From the NCBI GenBank assembly GCA_011033025.1, contig WFMF01000068.1, positions 62,001 through 126,000 of the forward strand: a stretch of 64,000 nt of DNA, given 5' to 3'. Made by a program: the position numbers and the translations under genes. This document shows positions 4,695 through 56,400 of this stretch, piece by piece; position 1 is the first letter of the stretch; each line of letters starts with the position of its first letter. The stretch is from Beroe forskalii. Lineage: Eukaryota; Ctenophora; Nuda; Beroida; Beroidae. The notes under the pieces are model-generated. The model saw nothing but the letters and a program-made list of their open reading frames with translations. It made no database searches and was not told the DNA's origin.

Positions 4695-6620
4695 GGCAAA
4701 ATGGTACCACAGGAACACGACAAAAATTAGCCTCCATTAGCCTCCATTAGCCTCCATGGAGGCTGAGTGGAGGCTGAGTGGAGCCTGAGTGGTGGCTAAG
4801 TGGAGGCTAATTTCAAAAATCAGCCTCCATGGAGGCTAATAGAGGCATGAGGCTAATTTTCAAAAAATAGCCTCCACTATGGAGGCTAATTAGCCTCCAC
4901 CCAGCCTCCACTAGGCTCCACTCAGCCTCCACTATGCCTCCACTCAGCCTCCACTCAGCCTCCACTCAGCCTCCACTCAGCCTCCATGGAGGCTAAATTT
5001 TTGGTTTAGCCTCCACTAGCCTCCACTCAAGAATTAGCCTCCATTAGCCTCCATGGAAGCTATTTTGACAGTGCTAGTGGAGGCTATAGCCTCCAAATGG
5101 AGGCTAAAATCATGAAAAAACACAGATAATATGCTAGCCTCCACAAAATTAAATTTAGGTCATGTTTTTACAAAAAGAGTACATTTTGTAACATAGACCA
5201 AAGTTTCTAATCCAGCTAGTATTAGGCAATAGGCACCACTGGGCCTCCACTAGAATCCACTCAGCCTCCACTAGGCTTCACTCAGCCTCCACTAGGCTCC
5301 ACTCAGCCTCCACTAGGCTCCATTCAGCCTCCACTAGCCTCCACTTAGCCTCCACTCAGCCTCCACTTAGCCTCCACTAGGCTCCACTCAGCCTCCACTA
5401 GCCTCCACTAGCCTCCACCTCACTGGCCTCCTCCACTAGGCTCCACTGGGCCCACCAGCCTCCACCCAGGCCCAACCAGGCTAGTGGAGCTAAGTGGAGC
5501 CTAGTGGAGGCTGAGTGGAGCCTAGTGGAGGCTGAGTGGAGCCTAGTGGAGGCTAGTGGAGGTTGAGTGGAGCCTAGTGGAGGCTGAGTGGAGCCTAGTG
5601 GAGGCTGAATGGAGCCTAGTGGAGGCTGAGTGGAGTCTGAGTGGAGGCTAGTGGAGCCTAGTGGAGGCTAGTGGAGGCTGAGTGGAGCCTAGTGGAGGCC
5701 GAATGGAGCCTAGTGGAGGCTGAGTGGAGCCTAGTGGAGGCTAGTGGAGGTTGTGTGGAGCCTAGTGGAGGCTGAATGGAGCCTAGTGGAGGCTGAGTGG
5801 AGCCTAGTGGAGGCTGAGTGGAGGCTAGTGGAGCCTATTGGATCCTAGTGGAGGCTAGTGGAGCCTAGTGGTGGCCAGTGGAGCCTAGTGGAGGCTTAGT
5901 GGAGCCTAGTGGAGGCTAGTGGGGCCTGAGTGGAGCCTAGTGGAGGCTGAGTGGAGCCTAGTGGAGGCTAAGTGGAGGCTAGTGGAGGCTGATTGGAGCC
6001 TAGTGGAGGCTGAGTGGAGCCTAGAAGAGGCTGAGTGGAGCCTAGTGGAGGCTGAGTGGAGCCTAGTGGAGGCTGAGTGGGGCCTTGTGAAGGCTGAGTG
6101 TAGGATAGTTGGAGCTGTCTGAAAGTTTGAAGCTATATATTGGTTTTCACATTAGTACACATAAATCACCATTTCCAGCAAGAAATTTGTGTTTTGTAGG
6201 CTCATTGATTTAGGCTCCACTCAGCCTCCACTTAGCCTCCACTCAGCCTCCATTAGCCTCCATTAGCCTCCATATGGAGGCTTTAGCCTCCACAAAAATG
6301 ACTCTTTAAATTTCCATGGAGGCTAATGGAGGCTAATTCTTGAGTGGAGGCTAAACCAAAAATTTAGCCTCCAATCCTCCATGGAGGCTGAGTGGAGGCT
6401 GAGTGGAGGCTGAGTGGAGGCTGTGTGGAGGCTAATTAGCCTCCATAGTGGAGGCTATTTTTCAAAAATTAGCCTCATGCCTCCATTAGCCTCCGTGGAG
6501 GCTAATTTTTGACATTAGCCTCCACTTAGCCTCCACTCAGGCTCCACTCAGGCTCCACTCAGCCTCCATGGAGGCTAATGGAGGCTAATTTTTGTCGTGT
6601 TCCTGTGGTACCATTTTGCC
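4695..6620. mobile_element. Foldback element built on a GGAGGCT minisatellite (copy 1)
   Basis: The left end GGTACCACAGGAACACGAC (from about 4703) is mirrored exactly by its reverse complement ending near 6613. The match extends through AAAAATTAGCCTCCATTAGC. Between the ends, a GCCTCCACT-type array reads one way to about 5465 and its complement reads the other way to about 6110. The main unit is 21 bp (GCCTCCACTA followed by GGCTCCACTCA). A non-repeat segment of about 90 bp lies at 6105-6200. Outer, less perfect inverted matches with AGCAGA/GTCTGC motifs reach about 4650 and 6665. Heptad open frames (WSLVEAE) are a by-product of the 21-bp unit. No transposase gene is seen, so it would be non-autonomous. 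Confidence 0.75.
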
Positions 6621-15591: not shown

Positions 15592-15664
15592 GCCGAAATA
15601 GCTCAGTTGGGAGAGCGTTAGACTGAAGATCTAAATGTCCCTGGTTCGATCCCGGGTTTCGGCA
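15592..15664 (+). tRNA. tRNA-Phe (GAA)
   Basis: The 73 bases fold as a complete cloverleaf: acceptor GCCGAAA pairs with TTTCGGC, A box TAGCTCAGTTGGGAGAGC, anticodon loop CTGAAGA with anticodon GAA, B box GGTTCGATCCC, discriminator A. No CCA is encoded, as expected for a nuclear eukaryotic gene. A T-run (TTTT at about 15,669) follows and would end Pol III transcription. Confidence 0.97.
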
Positions 15665-15863
15665 GATATTTTGATTATCGCCGAAAAATAGCCCAACAAA
15701 TTTTGTTCACCTCATTTAAAAGGGCCAAATTTTATTTGTCAAGCGGAAAAAATTGAAAAGAGCAGTGTCGGTTGATTCCGTCAACTCTTAGTATTGACTA
15801 TTTTGCAAAACATTATACCCAGGCATTCAACAAAGAAATTTGTTGACAGGAAACAAAAGTATT

Positions 15864-15936
15864 TGCCGAAACCCGGGATCGAACCAGGGACATTTAGATC
15901 TTCAGTCTAACGCTCTCCCAACTGAGCTATTTCGGC
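15864..15936 (-). tRNA. tRNA-Phe (GAA), inverted relative to its neighbour
   Basis: The reverse strand reads as the same 73-base tRNA-Phe as at 15592-15664, with anticodon GAA and the same A and B boxes. The two genes point towards each other with about 200 bp between. Reading beyond the 3' end on the minus strand, a TTTT run at about 15,855-15,858 can act as terminator. Both copies look intact. Confidence 0.97.
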
Positions 15937-16115
15937 TGTAGTACTCTGGCTACTTCCAGGTGTTGAAATTTGCGTACAATTTTAAAATTTGATGCATCCA
16001 TCTTCGGGTTTCACCTTGGCACTTGAGCATACAAATCGTTCAAATCCCAGTCAATAACATTCGTGCAATGCAGGTAAAATAAAAAGAAAATCGATCGTAA
16101 CGACAAAAGGTATAT

Positions 16116-16187
16116 TTCCCATACCGGGAATCGAACCCGGGTCTTGTGGGTGAAAGCCACAGATGCTAGCCCCTACACCATATGGGA
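16116..16187 (-). tRNA. tRNA-Glu (TTC)
   Basis: The reverse strand gives TCCCATATGGTGTAGGGGCT at the 5' end, an anticodon loop CTTTCAC with anticodon TTC, a T arm GGGTTCGATTCCC and a closing TATGGGA with discriminator A: 72 bases in all. The sequence agrees with the animal tRNA-Glu pattern. A TTTT run lies just downstream on the minus strand. Confidence 0.95.
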
Positions 16188-16885: not shown

Positions 16886-19800
16886 CACGGTTGTTGTACC
16901 CTCCTCTGTTATTGTAGCCACCTCCATAGCCGCCTCTGTAGCCACCTGAAGTGAGGAATTACTTATTTCAAGGGATTTAAGAGGGTGTTTATTTTCTTTA
17001 CACATGATTCCATTTTGTCACTTCAAGAATTCCATGATATGGCTCAGAACGGCTGAAAAATCTCAGTAATAATCGTGGTATATATCTGGGATTTAGCTAA
17101 CCTGAGTAGCCACCGCCACCATAGCCGCCTCCATAGCCACCTGAAATAGGGGTGGGGTCATTAAATAACATGTTTATATTGGGACTGTTTGAAAAAGAGA
17201 TTGGTATAGTCAATAGTGACTAGAATGGGGTATTTTTTGTCTTAATAGTTGATCCTATTACGACGCACTACAGAGGATTCAATTCATAATCTAAGTCTTT
17301 TTAGTTATTTGATGGTCCTTAAAATACGACAGACATTTCTCCTGACCTGTAGAACCACTACACTCTAAAGTTTGTATATCTTACCTCTGTAGCCGCCGCC
17401 CCCGTAGCCACCTCTGTTGCCACCGTAGCCACCTCTGTTTCCACCGTACGGACTGTACCTGCAACAACACACGGGGATTATATTGGCAGGAGCAAAAATA
17501 ATGATGCCCAGGCTGTCTGGGTAATTCTACATGAAAAACATCATTTCAAGCATGAACGATAGATGAAGGCCCATGATAATGGGCAGATTTAGGTGGAAAT
17601 TTGGAAGAGGATTTTAAAGCAAACCCCTCATTACCACCCACCTGTTGTCCCTGTTGTTGTTGTTGTTCCACTTGTTGTTGTAGTTATTGTAGTTGTTATA
17701 GTACCCTCCTCGATTGTTGTTGTAAGGACGGGACCTCCTCCTGTTGTTCTTCAACCAGTCCTGTCCTTCTGAGTTGTACGTTCTGATCCGGGTATGGGTT
17801 TCTTCCTCCGTTCCGTCCAGGAATTCAACCTGGGTAATTACCGAGTAATTCAACTTTTTAGATTCTTCAAAACTTAGAAGCAAAACTTCAAGTGAAATGT
17901 AAAAGCGTCAAAATTCTGTACAGTATGCAGTGATTTCCACAGATGACTCAGCACAATTTTCCGCAATTTCCACCATAGATTTCCCTATAATTGCCAACTC
18001 ACGGAAGAGACTTGGTCGGGTGTAACAGGCACAGTGAGGTAAGCCTTCATCTCATTCTGCAAGTCTTTAGGCAGCTCCTCATGTCTCTCTGCCTCAGGGA
18101 TCCCTTCTGCTCGTTCCTTGAGGACTTCCTCAGACGGGATGATGGCGACTGCCCGACGATCATACCCTCCGGTAAAGTTTTGGTTAGAACACCATCAGAC
18201 CCTCCTGGCCAACAGAAGTGAATAGTTAGAATTAGATCAAACCCTCCTGAGAATTGAGATGAGATGGTATGGAAATGGTTGAAATAAGGGATTATGAGCA
18301 TCTCTAAAATCGATACATTCAAGGAGGCATTTTTTGAATTTCGTCACCCCATTCGCCTGTTACCCTCCGGTAAAATAGCTGAGTTTCCGCCTCTGAGCCG
18401 CGCTCTGACAGTTATGCTGATCGATGATGTAATTCCTCGCCCGCCGGCCCGCCAAATCGAACACAATCCGTAGCAAGTTCTCAGCGTGGTTTATCATCCC
18501 GAAGCCCATGCGACCGTTCTTGGTTTTCTTGCGGGCTTCCACCGCATCGCTCATTCGTTTGAGAATGTAGGAAGTTCCGAGGAGGTAGTAACTGAGAGGG
18601 GTTGGAAAGGGTAAGAAGTAGCATTTTGCAGAAGGGTGAATGGGTCCCTTGTGGGAACAAAACAGAACAAAGTAAAAATGGGACATGCGCGGTCAACAAA
18701 AATACGCTGTTATAGTTGAAAACAGGCCACTAAACAGGCCGTCAAGAAATTAACTCACTTCTTCTCGGGGTTTTCCTCCACGACCTTCTTCACATAGGTA
18801 GTTTTCCCTGCACTGGAGAATCCAATCATCATGATCACCTCGCACTCCTCCCTGCTTGCTGGCGCCTTGTATCCCTTCACTTTATCCTCGTGATCCTGAG
18901 ATGGGGTTTTTCTTTGTTTTTACGGTCATTGGGGGGGGGGACAAGGTTTGCTTTTGTGATTTTGGGAGGGAACGTATTTGTTTTTTTAATGATTCTCTGA
19001 GGGGCAGGGTTTGTGTTGTGATCATGGGAGAGGGACAGGGTTTGTTTTTACAATCCTGGGAGGGACGGGGTTTGTTTTTTACAATCCTGGGAGGGACGGG
19101 GTTTGTGTTGTGATCCTGGGACGGACGGGGTTTGTTTTTATAATCCTGGGGAGGGACGGGGTTTGTTTTTCTGTTTCCAGAGTGAGCAGGGTTGAGGCGG
19201 ACAAAAGTTAGTAGCCCAAGAATCAGAAAGAGGGACTTCTTTTTGGGCTTTATTACCCAGAATTAGGTTTGAATATCTTTAATCTGAAAAATCGTGTAAG
19301 TTAAAGGAGCGTTTGTTTTGTTAGATCAAAAGAAGCTGATATAGGTGACGGAGTCTTTGGCATCTAAGGAGATCATGATGCTATTAGAAGACTCAGGCAA
19401 AAGTTCCAAAAAATAGATCAATAAATATCATTTCATTTGAAAATTCTGGAGAATGAAAGGGAGACAAAGATGAAACCATCGCAGAATTTCGTTCATTAAG
19501 ACTGCCCGTGCTCTTGCACCCTAGCATTAACGTCATAATGCAAGCACCTATTAAATAGATGCTCCTCGAACTATTTTAAGACAATGATTACAGTAATGGC
19601 ATATTAGGAGCGAAAAAGAGAAAAAATGAACACAAAGGCACGATAAAAGGTCCTTAAATCAAAGAACGGTCAATAAATATCGAGCTCATTGTTGACTAAA
19701 TAGAATCATAAATGCCTGCAGGGTTTAAAAACAGTAGATCTCAATTTCGCGGTACATTACTCTAAAATGATCGTGCACTACGTTATATCCTGTTTGATGG

Positions 19801-22800
19801 TATTTGCATGGGGCACCTCACGGGAAAACTTCTCGTTTTTTCTCGACTACCAGACAGAGTTGAGTGGATTTATCTACGAAGGTTCAAATACTCCGGTACG
19901 GTGTGATGTTCTAACACCCGCCAAAACAAGGAAAATCACAACCACGCGTCTGGAAACCCTTGGCATGAACTCCACCGGAGCCAAGAAAATGTGCCCCTTC
20001 CGTCCGAGCATGAGAACTTGTAGGAACAGGCGCAATCTGAGCATGGCAGAAAGCTGCTTGGCGCATGATTGGGTGTGCTGGATTGGAAATATCAATGTTT
20101 GTGATGGATTCTCCGTTTGTTTGTGGGACGAATGCAGCTGTCCTAATTCTGAGGAAACCGTTTTCTTCTGTGCTGATGGACAGGGGTGTATTGACATAGC
20201 ATCGACTTGTAATGGCCAGTATGACTGTTTTGATGGATCCGATGAAAAGGTGTGCGAAGACTTGGTTGAGATAACATGCAAAAACGAATTTCTAGATATG
20301 GATACCCTAGAGTGGGATACCAACACCGACAAACTGATCTTATCGAGACACATTGCCTGTCGACAGCAAATGATGGACATGGCGAGACCTGACTTTTCAG
20401 AGTGTGACCTGTCGGTATGTGACAATTACAACGTCTCGAAAGGAATGTTCGCAGGTCACCAGAGCACGTACCAATGCACGTTCAAAATAAGTGAGGCTAT
20501 CGATAAATTATTGTTTGCCGGTTGGTTCCAGCTAATAAATATCACAAAAATATGTTTGAAAAAGTGTCAAGGGCTAGTTTCCACCGAAATATGCGGGGGG
20601 TTCGACACCAGTTACACCCCAGGACGCCTCTTTGAATTTAAGTGCACTGGAAAAAAGGGCGGTCTTTTCCAACACATTGAACCAAGAAGGGTGTGTGACG
20701 GTAAGTTCGATTGTGAGGATTCCTCCGATGAGATGCATTGTTTAGACAGGTTTTACTGCACTGACCCAGGTGGAAACACCAGTGAAGTGTCCTGGGTGTC
20801 ACAGGGGGCGGTGTGTAATAGTTTCAAGGACTGTGACAATGGGAGGGATGAGTGTGCTGACTGCAACATGGGGGTCATGTCAAATAACCAGTTTCTGGTG
20901 AGAAACCGTGCACTTTTCCAGTGGCTCATCCTGTCGTGTCTGATGAATTTCATTGCAAATATTTGGGCTGGAAAAGCTGATATAACGAAGTTAACGGACC
21001 AACTTGAGAATCACATTAAGGTTGATGTGTTTCTAAAACTTCAGATCTGTTTCTACGATCTTCTGCAGGGTTTTTACCTCCTCTCCATTATCTGTGCTAA
21101 TGTGACGTTCTTCGGAAAGTACTGTGAGTTTGACCACGATTGGAGGTCTGGGTGGATGTGCAAGGTTCTAGGGATCACCTTCAACTTCTCTTCCCATGGC
21201 TCCTTGCTTACAGTCCTCATCATGACTTGTTCCAGAGCCTACAAATGTCAGTATAGCTTCACTGAAGGGGTCCGCCTGAGATCCATCGTCCTGGTCTCCA
21301 TTCCACTAGCCTTCCTGAACTTCTCCATCTGGGTGGTCCCTGTACTTCCACTTGACTCCATACAAAGTGTGTTCAGGAGTAAGATAACCTTGACACAAGC
21401 TAACCCGTTCATAGTAAGAGATTACCATGATGCGAGTCATATTGATAGGATCTACTCTCAATACTTCGGAACAAACCATTCAAAGCTAGGCATTTATGAG
21501 AAAATAGGAGTCCTCAAAACCATTACCAACAAGCCAGAGCTTTTCAGTTACAGTGAATTGTCCTTTTACAGTTGGTCCCCGGTGTGCATTCACGACCTTT
21601 TTGGGTACAAAGACGCTCTGAGATACCACAAAATAGCCTACATTTTATCCATACTCACCATACTGGCTGCTATCACAGCATTTTATCTAGTAATCCTGAA
21701 CATCTTCTTGAAAACCCGAAGCATCGCCAATCCGTCCACCAATAACCAGGTAGAAAGGGAGCTGATAATTAAAGTTATTCTTATCGTGGGAGTGAAACTT
21801 GTCTCATGGCTTACCATCATTGTTGTCATGGTATACTTCACTATAACCAGAAAGTACGTGCCGGACATTTGGTTCGAGGTCACATCGGTCTTCATAATAC
21901 CCACAAACAGCATTCTCAACCCCATTTTCAATAGCAACCTAATCAAGTTCCTGACAGATGGTGCTAGAAAGATCTGGTCTTGGACGACTGCTAAACGCAA
22001 GGATGAGAGCATACAAATGTCTTCTGTTGCTGTGAAAAGCAGGTACCGAGAAGACTCCATTCCAGCCCAAGATTCCGTCCAAAACGAACGGAGGCGACTG
22101 AGACTGCTGATACTACCATTATGGAGAGCTAGATCACAACCATTTTTCCATGATCTTACCCCTAACCTGAACCGTAACATTAACCTTGTGAACCTAAATA
22201 GCTCTGGACATGAACAAGTCACGAAGACAGAAGGTAACAAACGATCGAAGGTATTTGACAGAAACATTTTCACTGGATGTTAGCAGACACAGAGGAATGT
22301 TGCAAAACGCTTTTATTAATGACAATTAGAAAGAGAATGCTATTTTAACATGCTGATGATATATTGAAATACGTATTCGTTGGACCAGTGACAAGGTTTT
22401 TAAGACAAGTTTAATATTAGGAATATGTTTATTGTACAATCTACGTAATATGCGCTATTTAGTTCTATATATCGCCTCTAATTTGTCTATAATACCTGAA
22501 TGTAGGTGAATGTTTCGGGAGTGAAGATGTCTTCTCCAGGCGATGTTATCAGGGAGAAAGGCATGTTCCTTATACCTGAAATGGGGAAAACTGTAGCATC
22601 AAGGGCTCGTAATATAATTAATGATGGGCAACAATGGGGAAGGGTGAGGAGGAACCTTCATCAGGGAAAGTGATATTTTCCAGAAATCGCCTTATGCCGT
22701 CAAGAATTCAGCAACGGTTTGCGATAGGTGTCTAGGATCGACGGGAAGTTTTCTAAGAATAAATTTGCAACAAATGTAAATTCAAATGATATTTCACTTA

Positions 22801-44300: not shown

Positions 44301-47300
44301 ATGGTACCACAGGAATATGACCAACATTAGCTTCCATTAGCATTCATGGAGGCTGAATAGAGGCTAATTTCAAGAATAAGCCTCCATGGAGGCTAATGGT
44401 TGCAATAGGCTAAGTTTCGAAAAATTGCCTCTACTGTGGTGGCTAATTACTTAATTAGCCTCCATTAGCCTCCACTCAGCCTCAATGGAAGCTTAAATTT
44501 TGGTTTCACCTCCACTAGCCTCCACTGAAGTCTGAAGAATTAGCCTCCATTAGCCTCAACGGAAAATAAAATATAACATTTTCGTGGAGGCTAAAGCTTT
44601 AATTTATGGAGGCTAGTGGAGGCTCTTTGGAGGCAGAGTGGAGCCTAAATCAATATTAGCGTCCATAAAACTGGTAAAATGTGCACTAAAAATGCAATTC
44701 ATAGATTCAAACTTTCAGACAGCTCCAACTATCGTCCACTCAGACTCCACTAGGCTCCACTCAGCCTCTACCAGGCTCCACACAACCTCCAATAGCCTCC
44801 ACTCAGCAGTCAGCATCACTAGGAATCAATCAGACTCAATTAGGCACCACACAGCCTCCACTAGGCTCCACTCAGACTCCACTAGTCCCGTTTAACCTCC
44901 ACTAGGCTCCATTCAGCACCCACTAGGCCCCACACAACCTCCACTAGGCCCCACACAACCTCCACTAGGCTTCACTTGGCCTCCACTAGGCTCCACTCAG
45001 CCTCCACTAGGCTCCATTAACCTCCACTAGGCTCCACTCGGCCTCCACTAGGCTCCACTCAGCCTCTACTAGGCTCCACACAGCCTACACTAGGCTCCAC
45101 TCAGCATCCACTAGGAATCACTCGGACTCCACTAGTCTCCGTTCAACCTCCACTAGGCTCCATTCAGCATCTACTAGGCTCCACTCAGCCTCCACTAGTC
45201 TCCATTAACCTCCACTAGGCTCCACACAGCCTCCACTAGGCACCACTCAGCCTCCATTAGGCTCCACTTGGTCTCCACTAGGCTCCACTCAGTCTCCATA
45301 CACCCTCCACTGATCACTAGGCTCCATCCAGCCTCCACTGAACCACTAGGCCTCACACAGCCGCCACTAGGTTCCACTCAGCCTCCACTAGGCTCCACTC
45401 AGCCTCCACTAGGCTCCAATCAGCCTCCACTAGGTTCCACCCAGCCTCTCCTAGGCTCCACGCAGCCTCCACTGACCACTAGGCTCCATCCAGCCTCCAC
45501 TAGGCTCCATTCAGCTTCCATTACGCCGTCCTGTTCCGACAGGATGGCAACGGGGAGGAACGGGACTCCTGTCCCATACGGGCGCCTGGGAGCTTGGAAG
45601 CGCTTGTGTCGGCCAGTAGCTTCCTCTCCTGGGCGCCGCCTGGGGCCCATCCCCCTTCTAGTAGTAGGCTCCACTCAGCCTCCACTAGGCTCCACTCGGC
45701 CTCCACTAGGCTCCATTGAGCCTCCACTAGGCTCCGCTCGGCCTCCACTAGGCTACACTCAGCCTTCACTAGGCTCCATTCAGATTCCATTAGGCTCCAC
45801 TCATCCTCCGCTAGACTCCACTCAGCCTCGATGAGTCTCCATACACCCTCCACTAGGCGCCACTCAGCCTCGATTAGTCTCCATAAAACCTCCACTCAGC
45901 CTCCACTAGGCTCCACTCAGCCTCCACTAGGCTCCATTCAGCCTCCACTAGGTTCCACCCAGCCTCTTCTAGGCTCCACACAGCCTCCACTGACCACTAG
46001 GCTCTACTCAGCCTCCACTAGGCTCCGCTGAGCCTCCACTAGGCTCCACTCAGCAGTCAGCATCACTAGGAATCACTTAGACTCCATTAGGCACCACACA
46101 GTCTCCATTAGGCTCCACTCAGACTCCACTAGTCCCGTTCAACCTCCACTAGGCTCCATTCAGTATCCACTAGGCCCCACTCAGCCTCTACTAGGCTCCA
46201 CACAGCCTACACTAGGCTCCACTCAGCATCCACTAGGAATCACTCAGACTCCACTAGTCTCCGTTCAACCTCCACTAAGCTCCACTCAGCCTCCACTAGG
46301 CTCCACCCAGCCTCCACTTGGCTCCAATCAGCCTCCACTAGGCTCCACTCAGCCTCCACATTCCACAAGGCTCCACTTGACCTCCACTAGGCACAACTCA
46401 GCCTCCACTAGGCTCCACTCGGCCTCCACTAGGCTCCATTCAGCATCTACTAGGCTCCACTCAGCCTCGATGAGTCTCCATACACCCTCCACTAGGCTCC
46501 ACTCAGCCTCCACTAGGCTCCATTCAGCCTCCACTAGGTTCCACCCAGCCTCTTCTAGGCTCCACACAGCCTCCACTGACCACTAGGCTCCACTGAGCCT
46601 CCACTAGGCTCCACTCAGCCTCCACTAGGCTCCATTCAGCCTCCACTAGGTTTCACCCAGCCTCTTCTAGGCTCCACACAGCCTCCACTGACCACTAGGC
46701 TCCACTCAGCCTCCACTAGGCTCCACTCAGCCTCCACTAGGCTCCACTCAGCCTCCACTAGGCTCCACTCAGCCTCCACTAGGCTCCACTCATCCTCCAC
46801 TAGGCTCCACAGTCCACACAGCATTTATTAGACTCTACTCAGTCTCCACTGACCAGTAGGCTCCAATCAGCCTCCATAACGCTCCACACAGCCTCCATTG
46901 GGCTCCACTCTGTCTCCACTAGTCTCCACTCAGCTTCCACTAGGCTTTAACCAACCTCCACTAGGCACCATTCGGCCTCGACTAGTCTCCACTCAGCCAC
47001 CACTAGGCTCCATTCAGCCTCAACTAGTGCACTAGGCACCACACAGCCTCCACTAGGCGTCACACTGCCTCCATTAGGCGTCACGCAGCATCCACTCAGC
47101 CTCCACTAGGCGCCACTAAGCCTTCACTAGTCTCCACGCAGCCTCCACTAGGCACCACTAAGCCTTCACTAGTCTCTACTCAGCCCTTACTAGGCACCAC
47201 ACAGCCTCCACTAGGCGTCACACAGCATCCACTAGTCCACTAGGCGTCACTATGCCTCCATTAGGCGTCACGCAGCATCCACTCAGCCTCCACTAGGCGC

Positions 47301-47590
47301 CACTAAGCCTTCACTAGTCTCCACGCAGCCTCCATTAGGCTCCACTAAGCCTTCACTAGTCTCCACACAGCCTCCACTAGGCGTCACACAGCCTCCACTA
47401 GGCTCCACTCAGCCTCCACTGTGCTCCACACAGCCTCCACTAGTCCACTAGGCGTCACACAGCCTCCATTAGGCGTCACACAGCCTCCACTAGGCGTCAC
47501 ACAGCCTCCACTAGGCGTCACACAGCCTCCACTAGGCTCAACTCAGCCTCCACTAGGCGCCACTGAGCAATAAGGCGCCACTAAGCAACG
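44301..47590. mobile_element. GGAGGCT-minisatellite foldback element (copy 2), right end lost or altered
   Basis: The left end ATGGTACCACAGGAATATGA matches the end of copy 1. Subterminal GGAGGCTAATTTCAAGAAT-type segments follow, and then the unique segment TTCAAACTTTCAGACAGCTC (about 44,709). That segment also occurs, inverted, in copy 1 near 6,120. An array of the 21-bp GCCTCCACTAGGCTCCACT unit then runs from about 44,735 to 47,570. Towards the right it changes to GTCACACAGCCTCCACTAGG units. No mirrored right terminus is seen. Open frames on either strand are repeat by-products. Confidence 0.75.
45533..45666. other. GC-rich non-repeat insert within the minisatellite
   Basis: About 134 bp beginning CGTCCTGTTCCGACAGGATG and ending CCCATCCCCCTTCTAGTAG break the 21-bp array. 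It holds GGCGCCTGGG and its complement-like CCTGGGCGCC. It could be a small insertion or a captured fragment. I do not recognise it. Confidence 0.5.
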
Positions 47591-53400: not shown

Positions 53401-56400
53401 GATATGAAGTTTTTAGTCGTCTGTAGGTAATGATACATACGTTTTGCATTTGAATGCCTGATCTGCAGTTATTTTCGTTTCTGCTTTTTGTCTTATTTGC
53501 TTTTGCTTTATCATTACCTTGGGCTGAAACAATTACTGAACAGGAGTGAGTTTACAAAACAAATCCCAACTTTCAGGTTAAGAAGTTGGATGAATACAAA
53601 GCGCTGAATGGGCAGGATTTCGTGCCCACCAGCCCTGAGGCTATGAGTACAGCTACGTTTTCTGACCGGAGGCTCTTCGCTGGTACAATGATATCAGATA
53701 ATCCTGGAAATAATATGTTTGCTATATCAAGCGCCAAGGTAAGTGCAGAGGTCATTGGTATATTTTGATACATTTTTCATCATTACTTCGTTTTTTTCCG
53801 TATTTTTTTTTCTACTCAATGCGTCAGATAACCAAAACTGATATGAAATTTCAAAATTTCGATTCCATAATTTGTCCCATTGACCGTACATCCAATTGAA
53901 TATATCCAATTAAGCAGAAAACCCAACGGGTTTTCTCGTTAGCATTATAATTTAAAATTAATTTTGATTACTTTCAATCAAATTTTGGTGTTTTCTAATT
54001 CCTCGCCCCACTTCAGATCGGCAGAGACAACCGGCAGTTTGCGAATCTGATCTCCACCTTTTACAGAGCTGATTGGCTCAACAAAGCCAAGTTTGTTTCG
54101 TCCTTCAGCAGTGGTGACTACGTATATTTCCTGTTCCAGGAGATAGACTACTTCTCAAATCAGGTTTTCTTTTTACCAACAACAACGGAGTTACAATGTC
54201 AAGATGTGTGTTTTTGTGGATCAGATTATCTCCAATTACCCAGGAAGAAAGCTGTTTCTCAGTCTCATGATACCTGACATTTCAAAATTTCCCAATTATT
54301 TTTTTGAGAGGCAGATCTGAGTACTTTGGCTTTATTGATGTTATAATACGATGCTTGACATCGTATTTATACTAATTTCATGGACAAAAATAAAAAGATA
54401 TCAATTTCTAAGACTATATTAATTGGTGAGCTTACTGATTATCAATTTCAGGTTGTGTCTCGCATTGCTCGGGTTTGCAAGGACCTTACTCAGCATTAAT
54501 TTCAGGTTGTGTCTCGCATTGCTCGGGTTTGCAAGGACCTTACACAGCATTAATTTCAGGTTGTGTCTCGCATTGCTCGGGTTTGCAAGGACCTTACTGA
54601 GCATTGATTTCAGGTTGTGTCTCGCATTGCTCGGGTTTGCAAGGACCTTACTGAGCATTAATTTCAGGTTGTGTCTCGCATTGCTCGGGTTTGCAAGGAC
54701 CTTACTGAGCATTTATTTCAGGTTGTGTCTCGCATTGCTCGGGTTTGCAAGGACCTTACTGAGCATTAATTTCAGGTTGTGTCTCGCATTGCTCGGGTTT
54801 GCAAGGACCTTACTCAGCATTAATTTCAGGTTGTGTCTCGCATTGCTCGGGTTTGCAAGGACCTTACTGAGCATTTATTTCAGGTTGTGTCTCGCATTGC
54901 TCGGGTTTGCAAGGACCTTACTGAGCATTTATTTCAGGTTGTGTCTCGCATTGCTCGGGTTTGCAAGGACCTTACTGAGCATTAATTTCAGGTTGTGTCT
55001 CGCATTGCTCGGGTTTGCAAGGACCTTACTGAGCATTTATTTCAGGTTGTGTCTCGCATTGCTCGGGTTTGCAAGGACCTTACTGAGCATTTATTTCAGG
55101 TTGTGTCTCGCATTGCTCGGGTTTGCAAGGACCTTACTGAGCATTAATTTCAGGTTGTGTCTCGGATTGCTCGGGTTTGCAAGGACCTTACTGAGCATTG
55201 ATTTCAGGTTGTGTCTCGCATTGCTCGGGTTTGCAAGGACGACACGGGTAACGATCCTGGTACCTTACGTCCCAGGAATCCGTGGAAAGTGTGGAAAACC
55301 TTCGTAAAAGCCAGGATTATGTGCGAGAACAAGGTGATGGACCCTACTTTCGGCAAACAGATCTTCTCCTACAACAGAATTGGGGAGTTATTTTAAACAA
55401 ATAATTCTAAATGCTTGGTGAATTCTATAAAGTTCAACGCTAATTCAAGGCTGTATGATAATGATGGTTGATAATGGATTGTACATTCATTAATTAGATG
55501 CAGAATCGTTATTATTTGTTAATAAGGTTAGGATTTAGGTTATGACTAATGGATATAGAATCTGGTCCCCAACTCCATACAACAGAATTGGGGACGGTAT
55601 TTTGGATGAGAAGCGGGTGATGTACGCCGCTTTCTCGCAAGGGGACACCTCGGCTAGCGGCTCGGTGGTCTGCAGCTACGAGCTCGACGACATCGACAAG
55701 ATATTCGACGATGGCCCGTACTTGATAAAGGACGAGAACGATAACCAGAACAAGGTGCTGCGGACTCCGCCAACCTGCGAAACAATGGACGACGTTGATA
55801 AAGACCAGAGCTTTGTGAGTTTCTAATCTGGTGTCTCCAGCTTTGGAGGCGCGGCAATAGTTTACTTACAAAAGTTCTCTATCAATTATAGTTAATTAAA
55901 TGATTTATAGCCAGAAATTTTAACTTTCCGCCTGAATTCGAGGCGCTTTTTGTCAAAATTCGAAGAGCCATATAATTCTATTGAATTTGAAACAGTTTCT
56001 GTTGAATTGAATTTGGGACCGTTGCTGTGTGAAATTAACCATCTTCTAATCGCAGAACTACTTGCTCACGGAGGACGCGGTGAAGTCAAAGAAAGCGCCC
56101 CTCTTCCTGCAGGCTGGCCCTCAGTTCACTAAGCTCCTTCTGGATAACAACGTCCAGAACGCTTCCTACCCGGTCCTCTTCATCGGAACCGGTGGGTTAA
56201 GTTAAACAGTAAACGTTAAGTTCAAATCCGAGAAATTCTGCCCGTACGATCGTACATTAAGTTATTATCCGACTCATTGTATAGTGTCTTCTAGATACTA
56301 GTTCAAATTCAAATTTATCGTGTATCCAGCACAATCGGTCATCCGATAGTTATCCCACTCGGACACTCGGCTTAAAGTTAACACTTCGTGATATAATTAT

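What the first reader, a model, noticed from the sequence alone, without database searches (positions are those of the whole stretch)
54431..55240. Fifteen tandem copies of a 3' splice site plus exon start in a semaphorin gene
The end of one intron and the first 33 bases of the next sema exon were amplified as a perfect 54-bp period. Each copy keeps a branch-like CTTACTGA, the AG and an AG|GT junction. The cell must pick the fifteenth acceptor. Any other, read in the exon frame, meets TAA or TGA at or before copy 14. AG|GT at each copy also makes each a potential recursive-splicing point. The array could tune productive splicing, act as a poison-exon rheostat, or be a hot spot that spawns introns by duplicating AG|GT segments.
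Basis: partly seen in the sequence, partly recalled or inferred. Interest (0 to 1): 0.88.

Follow-up and report, generated by a model that had tools for sequence, protein, structure and literature searches.

The report
Minisatellite on a semaphorin splice site
In an animal semaphorin gene the end of an intron plus the first 33 bases of the next exon is repeated fifteen times in a row; this looks like a kind of boundary-spanning repeat already described in lancelets ("mirages"), a striking but probably mostly harmless natural test of how cells choose among near-identical splice sites.

Summary
The array is real: exactly 15 head-to-tail 54-bp units at 54431-55240, each with 21 bases of intron end (TTTCAG) and 33 bases of exon start (GTTGTG...). 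Units are not identical (mean pairwise identity 97%). With the copy-15 acceptor, nine modelled exons join into a 469-residue open frame with a Sema domain; 14 of 14 other acceptors meet a premature stop.

Minisatellites across an intron-exon boundary are described in amphioxus as "mirages" (Adh3, globins, troponin C, PGBD5). Globin BflGb6 repeats the same kind of segment, intron 3' end plus exon start; RT-PCR suggested ordinary splicing there, and a role in intron gain was proposed. I file this as a new member of a known kind. The organism was not identified, so whether it is a lancelet is untested.

Rheostat and recursive-splicing roles are possible but unsupported; no RNA was examined. Against easy use of copy 15: only copy 1, nearest the donor, has a CTRAY branch motif. 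The coding region just downstream carries a 17-bp direct repeat 208 bp apart with stops between: perhaps a young intron, perhaps damage.

The parts
54431..55240 (+). array of 15 x 54-bp units; each = 21 bases of intron 3' end (ending TTTCAG) + 33 bases of exon start (GTTGTGTCTCGCATTGCTCGGGTTTGCAAGGAC, VVSRIARVCKD; copy 14 has one synonymous change)
54017..54163 (+). upstream exon e (IGRDNRQF...EIDYFSNQ), presumed donor CAG|GTTTTC
   Evidence: open frame and semaphorin alignment; donor inferred, weak U1 pairing -5.6 kcal/mol
54431..54484 (+). copy 1: the most diverged unit, 3 bases unlike the consensus, only unit with a CTRAY branch motif (CTGAT)
55187..55240 (+). copy 15: the unit whose acceptor (55207|55208) keeps the reading frame
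55208..55333 (+). exon f from copy 15 to donor AAG|GTGATG; the 469-residue model instead ends it at 55386 (GGA|GTTATT)
55370..55386 (+). first copy of 17-bp direct repeat TACAACAGAATTGGGGA
55578..55594 (+). second copy of the 17-bp direct repeat; the sema reading frame resumes here
55539..55814 (+). exon g as paired with donor 55333; the 469-residue model instead starts it at 55586

Best explanation
A boundary-spanning minisatellite of the kind called a 'mirage' in amphioxus. A 54-bp segment covering the last 21 bases of an intron and the first 33 of the next exon was duplicated (the unit junction shows no microhomology today) and expanded, by unequal exchange or slippage, to 15 partly homogenised copies (shown: copies and unit types; inferred: the events). 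Because the segment carries its own branch region, AG and exon start, the 14 upstream copies can be treated as intron and the protein stays unchanged if copy 15 is used. I infer that copy 15 is the main productive acceptor, since only it gives a short exon (126 or 179 nt, against 180-935 nt for the others) next to the downstream donor, as exon definition prefers. Use of earlier copies would yield messages with a premature stop that nonsense-mediated decay is expected to remove. On this reading the array is tolerated rather than selected, at the cost of some wasted transcript.
For: 15 exact-period units with intact AG|GT and exon start. Only copy 15 gives an open frame; 14 of 14 others stop 132-834 nt before 55333. 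The copy-15 model gives a 469-residue frame matched to solved semaphorins across the junction with a Pfam Sema match downstream of it. The surroundings are minisatellite-rich: 46 arrays (from the 75 rows, overlapping rows dropped) covering 20.5% of the window, 17 of 46 with at least 5 copies. A random 54-bp segment of this gene, array collapsed, spans an exon boundary in 848 of 5430 positions, so a boundary hit is not improbable. Amphioxus BflGb6 repeats the same kind of segment, with an edge unit excluded from homogenisation and 6 versus 3 units in two haplotypes, and RT-PCR suggested regular splicing. Here too one edge unit (copy 1) is the most diverged.
Against: Organism unknown, no genome held, so no second haplotype, transcript or relative was seen. 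Copy 1, nearest the donor, is the only unit of 15 with a CTRAY branch motif, so proximity and branch strength favour the wrong acceptor. The presumed upstream donor CAG|GTTTTC is weak. The coding region just downstream is interrupted by a 208-bp repeat-flanked stretch with in-frame stops, so this copy of the gene may be damaged. Right-edge copy 15 is not diverged (identical to copy 4).
Confidence: 0.7

Rival explanations
1. Self-correcting splice ratchet (a mechanism that could also operate within the mirage reading): the nearest acceptor (copy 1) is used first, but every junction recreates CAG|GTTGTG at the joined exon edge, so the message can be spliced again from that point to a later copy until copy 15 is reached. 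All paths that end at copy 15 give the same mRNA.
For: AG|GT in 15 of 15 units. Crude U1 pairing of CAG|GTTGTG is -7.6 kcal/mol in 15 of 15, within the range of the donors modelled in this gene (-2.1 to -11.7; presumed upstream donor -5.6). Copy 1 is nearest and has the best branch motif.
Against: The -7.6 value rests on a bulged pairing; contiguous pairing is only CAGGU. Of the first 3500 GT sites of the window, 116 reach -7 and 288 reach -5.5. A 54-nt intron is at or below usual animal minimum sizes (recalled). No RNA was examined.
Confidence: 0.1
2. Poison-exon rheostat: the copy number or splicing factors set the share of transcripts that use copies 1-14 and are degraded, so the array tunes semaphorin level.
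For: 14 of 14 upstream acceptors give a premature stop 132 nt or more before the donor at 55333, the arrangement expected to trigger decay.
Against: Any boundary duplication with a stop in the intronic part would do this; nothing shows selection for it. In 5 of the 14 units 2-15 (copies 6, 9, 10, 12, 13) the intronic part has even lost its stop codon.
Confidence: 0.06
3. Damaged or non-functional gene copy: the array and the interruption just downstream mark a decaying allele or paralogue.
For: In-frame stop at 55394 after exon f and a 17-bp direct repeat flanking a 208-bp stretch; weak donors at 54163 (-5.6) and, if used, at 55386 (-2.1); PSI match below Pfam's cut-off (21.7 versus 23.1 bits).
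Against: All nine modelled exons are open with GT-AG borders and join into one frame. An alternative intron 55334-55538 with an acceptable donor (-6.7) also removes the stop. The only exonic difference among 15 units is synonymous.
Confidence: 0.12
4. Assembly artefact: the copy number or the array itself was made by the assembler.
For: Repeat number is a common assembly error; an amphioxus globin mirage was reported as aberrantly assembled in a draft genome (legend of Additional file 4).
Against: Seven distinct unit types interspersed along the array are hard to make by mis-joining one unit; short-read assemblers usually collapse rather than expand arrays (general knowledge). For amphioxus PGBD5, re-sequencing was reported to confirm the repeats.
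Confidence: 0.04

Closest known systems
Amphioxus 'mirages': minisatellites spanning exon-intron boundaries (Adh3, globins BflGb6 and BflGb9, troponin C, PGBD5; PMC3087553, PMC3902484)
   Same: Tandem units covering an intron 3' end and exon start (BflGb6), AG/GT signals in many units, concerted evolution inside with an edge unit excluded. That the authentic copy lies last in BflGb6 is my inference from the text; the figure was not seen.
   Different: 15 units of 54 bp here, against 6 or 3 units of 150-160 bp in BflGb6 and units of 10-72 bp in Adh3 (the Adh3 copy number was not seen). The gene is a semaphorin. Organism, haplotypes and mRNA were not examined here.
[quoted passage not shown]
   Same: The duplicated segment crosses an intron 3' end and exon 5' part and passes on branch site, pyrimidine tract and AG.
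   Different: One duplication, a GTAAG donor, and a new intron confirmed by RNA-seq reads; here 14 extra copies and no RNA.
AGGT proto-splice-site duplication model (Rogers 1989, as cited in PMC4974935; Drosophila cases in PMC2891723)
   Same: Each unit begins and ends at AG|GT, so each is a potential GT-AG intron.
   Different: The model concerns exonic duplication and a new intron; here the array extends an existing intron.
Human internal tandem repeats at exon-intron boundaries in segmental duplications (PMC2812944)
   Same: Minisatellites at boundaries can change splicing or form introns; 27 intron modifications reported (passages).
   Different: On average 4 units of 30 bp, in genes within segmental duplications, with transcript evidence.

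Membership tests
amphioxus mirage | tandem minisatellite units that span an exon-intron boundary | tested here: met
   15 units of 21 intronic + 33 exonic bases; the boundary itself is inferred from the open frame and semaphorin alignment, not from RNA
amphioxus mirage | units keep AG/GT splice signals (many, not all, in published cases) | tested here: met
   TTTCAG|GTTGTG in 15 of 15
amphioxus mirage | internal homogenisation with diverged cluster edge | tested here: inconclusive
   copy 1 is most diverged, copy 15 is identical to copy 4
amphioxus mirage | found in a cephalochordate | not testable with these tools
   no genome held for the window; one exact-match scan, of viral contigs, gave 0; genome contigs (prokaryotes) was not scanned
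amphioxus mirage | length polymorphism or somatic instability | not testable with these tools
   one sequence only
amphioxus mirage | mRNA spliced as if the array were absent | not testable with these tools
   no RNA; only the copy-15 acceptor gives an open frame
semaphorin gene | Sema domain | tested here: met
   PF01403 E 4.6e-21, residues 255-395 of the model; 6qp9 Semaphorin-1A E 3e-35
semaphorin gene | PSI domain after the Sema domain | tested here: inconclusive
   PF01437 21.7 bits, cut-off 23.1; match runs to the end of the model
recursive splicing (ratcheting) point | 3' splice site directly followed by a functional 5' splice site | tested here: inconclusive
   AG|GT present, but +3 to +6 is TGTG and the U1 pairing is bulged; no RNA

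The most novel reading that the evidence does not exclude
The array is a self-correcting splice ratchet. Because every unit's AG is followed directly by GT, a wrong choice of acceptor regenerates a donor and can be undone, so the final mRNA does not depend on which acceptor is tried first. This would explain why boundary-spanning repeats are tolerated at such copy numbers and how introns can grow without changing a protein.
Probability: 0.1. Interest if true: 0.75.

Novelty: new member of a known kind. Interest (0 to 1): 0.42.

Why it matters
Fifteen nearly identical acceptors in a row in a native gene form a natural experiment on 3' splice-site choice: nearest-site and exon-definition rules predict opposite ends of the array, and wrong choices are readable in RNA because each of the 14 gives an exon of different length with a premature stop. 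It also bears on how introns lengthen or arise from tandem duplications. If the source is not a lancelet, it would extend mirage-type repeats beyond the animals in which I found them described.

Tried and rejected
Selection on the exonic part of all units: variable columns are 6 of 21 intronic against 1 of 33 exonic (Fisher p 0.011), but without the edge unit copy 1 it is 3 of 21 against 1 of 33 (p 0.29), so I do not claim it. RNA structure: copies 1-5 fold with z -2.16, 6 of 200 shuffles as stable; the single unit and whole array were folded without a control; too weak to use. Known RNA family: Rfam at gathering thresholds found 3 matches in the window, all tRNA. The array read as coding sequence: in the exon frame it has stops; another frame is open for 294 aa across it, which I take as a by-product of a period divisible by three. 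Copies elsewhere: none in the window up to 3 mismatches, no exact match in viral contigs.

Literature: ten paper searches ran. For a semaphorin mirage, (amphioxus, semaphorin, minisatellite, intron; 14 papers held at least three terms, 10 listed; amphioxus, minisatellite, mirage; 15 listed) showed none by title and start of abstract; only open-licence papers are held. Searches (3 papers; 2 papers) were seen as listings only; one listed paper reports an intronic VNTR that affects ABCA7 splicing (PMC5954066, listing only). One search found 0 papers. Passages of the amphioxus huntingtin paper (PMC2206037) mention tandem repeats but no mirage. Junction f/g: three readings were compared against solved structures.

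Full report
Observation. The window holds exactly 15 head-to-tail 54-bp units at 54431-55240. Each unit is 21 bases ending in TTTCAG and 33 bases starting GTTGTG. A 39-base core is found 15 times, only here, against 0 in 100 shuffles. The units are not identical: seven types in the order A B C D E F E B F F E F F G D, with 7 of 54 columns variable. The bases outside the array do not extend it, so the unit junction has no microhomology.

Gene. Exons b to j on the + strand, with GT-AG borders, join with the copy-15 acceptor into 469 residues without a stop; this model ends exon f at 55386 and starts exon g at 55586. Pfam gives Sema (E 4.6e-21, residues 255-395) and a sub-threshold PSI. Phmmer gives 31 distinct sequences, Semaphorin-1A first at E 3e-35, then Sema6. 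The alignment passes through the junction made by copy 15. Exon borders were placed by me from sequence, frame and alignment; exons upstream of b were not settled.

Consequence of each choice. In the exon frame 14 of 14 upstream acceptors meet a stop, 132-834 nt upstream of the donor at 55333; copy 15 reads open to 55393. With that donor the exon would be 126 nt from copy 15 and 882 nt from copy 1.

Signals. All 15 units have a YTNAY motif whose A lies 18 nt before the exon, but only copy 1 has a CTRAY motif. Crude pairing with the U1 5' end gives -5.6 kcal/mol for the presumed donor at 54163 and -7.6 for each AG|GT of the array, the latter with a bulge; of the first 3500 GT sites of the window 116 reach -7. 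Thus nearest-site and branch-strength rules point to copy 1, exon definition points to copy 15, and sequence alone cannot decide.

Surroundings. The window is rich in tandem arrays: 46 (from the 75 rows, overlapping rows dropped), 20.5% of the bases, 17 of 46 with at least 5 copies; 1 of 46 overlaps one of the modelled exons b-j. A random 54-bp segment of this gene, array collapsed, crosses one of 16 internal exon boundaries in 848 of 5430 positions, so the position needs no special cause.

Comparison. Boundary-spanning minisatellites are known in amphioxus as mirages. I read one whole section of PMC3087553 and passages of it and of PMC3902484. BflGb6 repeats the 3' end of an intron with the 5' part of exon 2, has 6 and 3 units in two haplotypes, and shows concerted evolution with an edge unit excluded; [quoted passage not shown] That paper also proposed mirages as a source of new introns. 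The original Adh3 paper is not held; I know it only through these papers. The potato RdRp case has the same geometry with a single duplication (abstract and results section). PMC2812944 reports human boundary repeats that can form introns (passages), PMC2891723 introns gained by tandem duplication in Drosophila (passages). The finding is therefore a new member of a known kind. Whether the source is a lancelet is not known.

Just downstream. TACAACAGAATTGGGGA occurs at 55370-55386 and 55578-55594, with in-frame stops between. Against Semaphorin-1A the 469-residue model scores 124.8 bits, the uninterrupted reading 123.4, and the reading with intron 55334-55538 115.8. For Semaphorin-3A the last two are equal or nearly so (for example 85.2 and 85.1 bits). 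This suggests, weakly, that one exon was interrupted. In an enumeration of open joins (17 pairs) the best donor is 55334, shared by three pairs, of which intron 55334-55538 keeps the most sequence. It may be a young intron, or the gene copy may be damaged.

Verdict. Most likely a tolerated mirage-type array with copy 15 as productive acceptor (0.7). The ratchet (0.1, partly overlapping with the main reading), damaged gene (0.12), rheostat (0.06) and artefact (0.04) readings remain open; no RNA or population data could be examined.

Noticed in passing
window 55370-55594: 17-bp direct repeat 208 bp apart inside the sema coding region, with in-frame stops between; possibly an interrupted exon spliced as a young intron (candidate 55334-55538).
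   Followed up: partly
window 54431-54484: Copy 1 alone carries a CTRAY branch motif and lacks the extra AG at unit position 8-9 that the 14 other copies have.
   Followed up: partly
window 19704-22280: 859-aa stop-to-stop frame with two LDL-receptor class A stretches (Pfam) and a weak match to glycoprotein-hormone receptors (7fig, E 6.1e-6): looks like an LDLa GPCR in one open frame.
   Followed up: partly
window 44735-47568: 2.8-kb array of about 21-bp units (TCCACTCAGCCTCCACTAGGC), with similar-looking arrays within 4726-6568.
   Followed up: no
window 15592-16187: tRNA-Phe (GAA) on opposite strands, starts 272 bp apart, with equal Rfam scores, and a tRNA-Glu.
   Followed up: no
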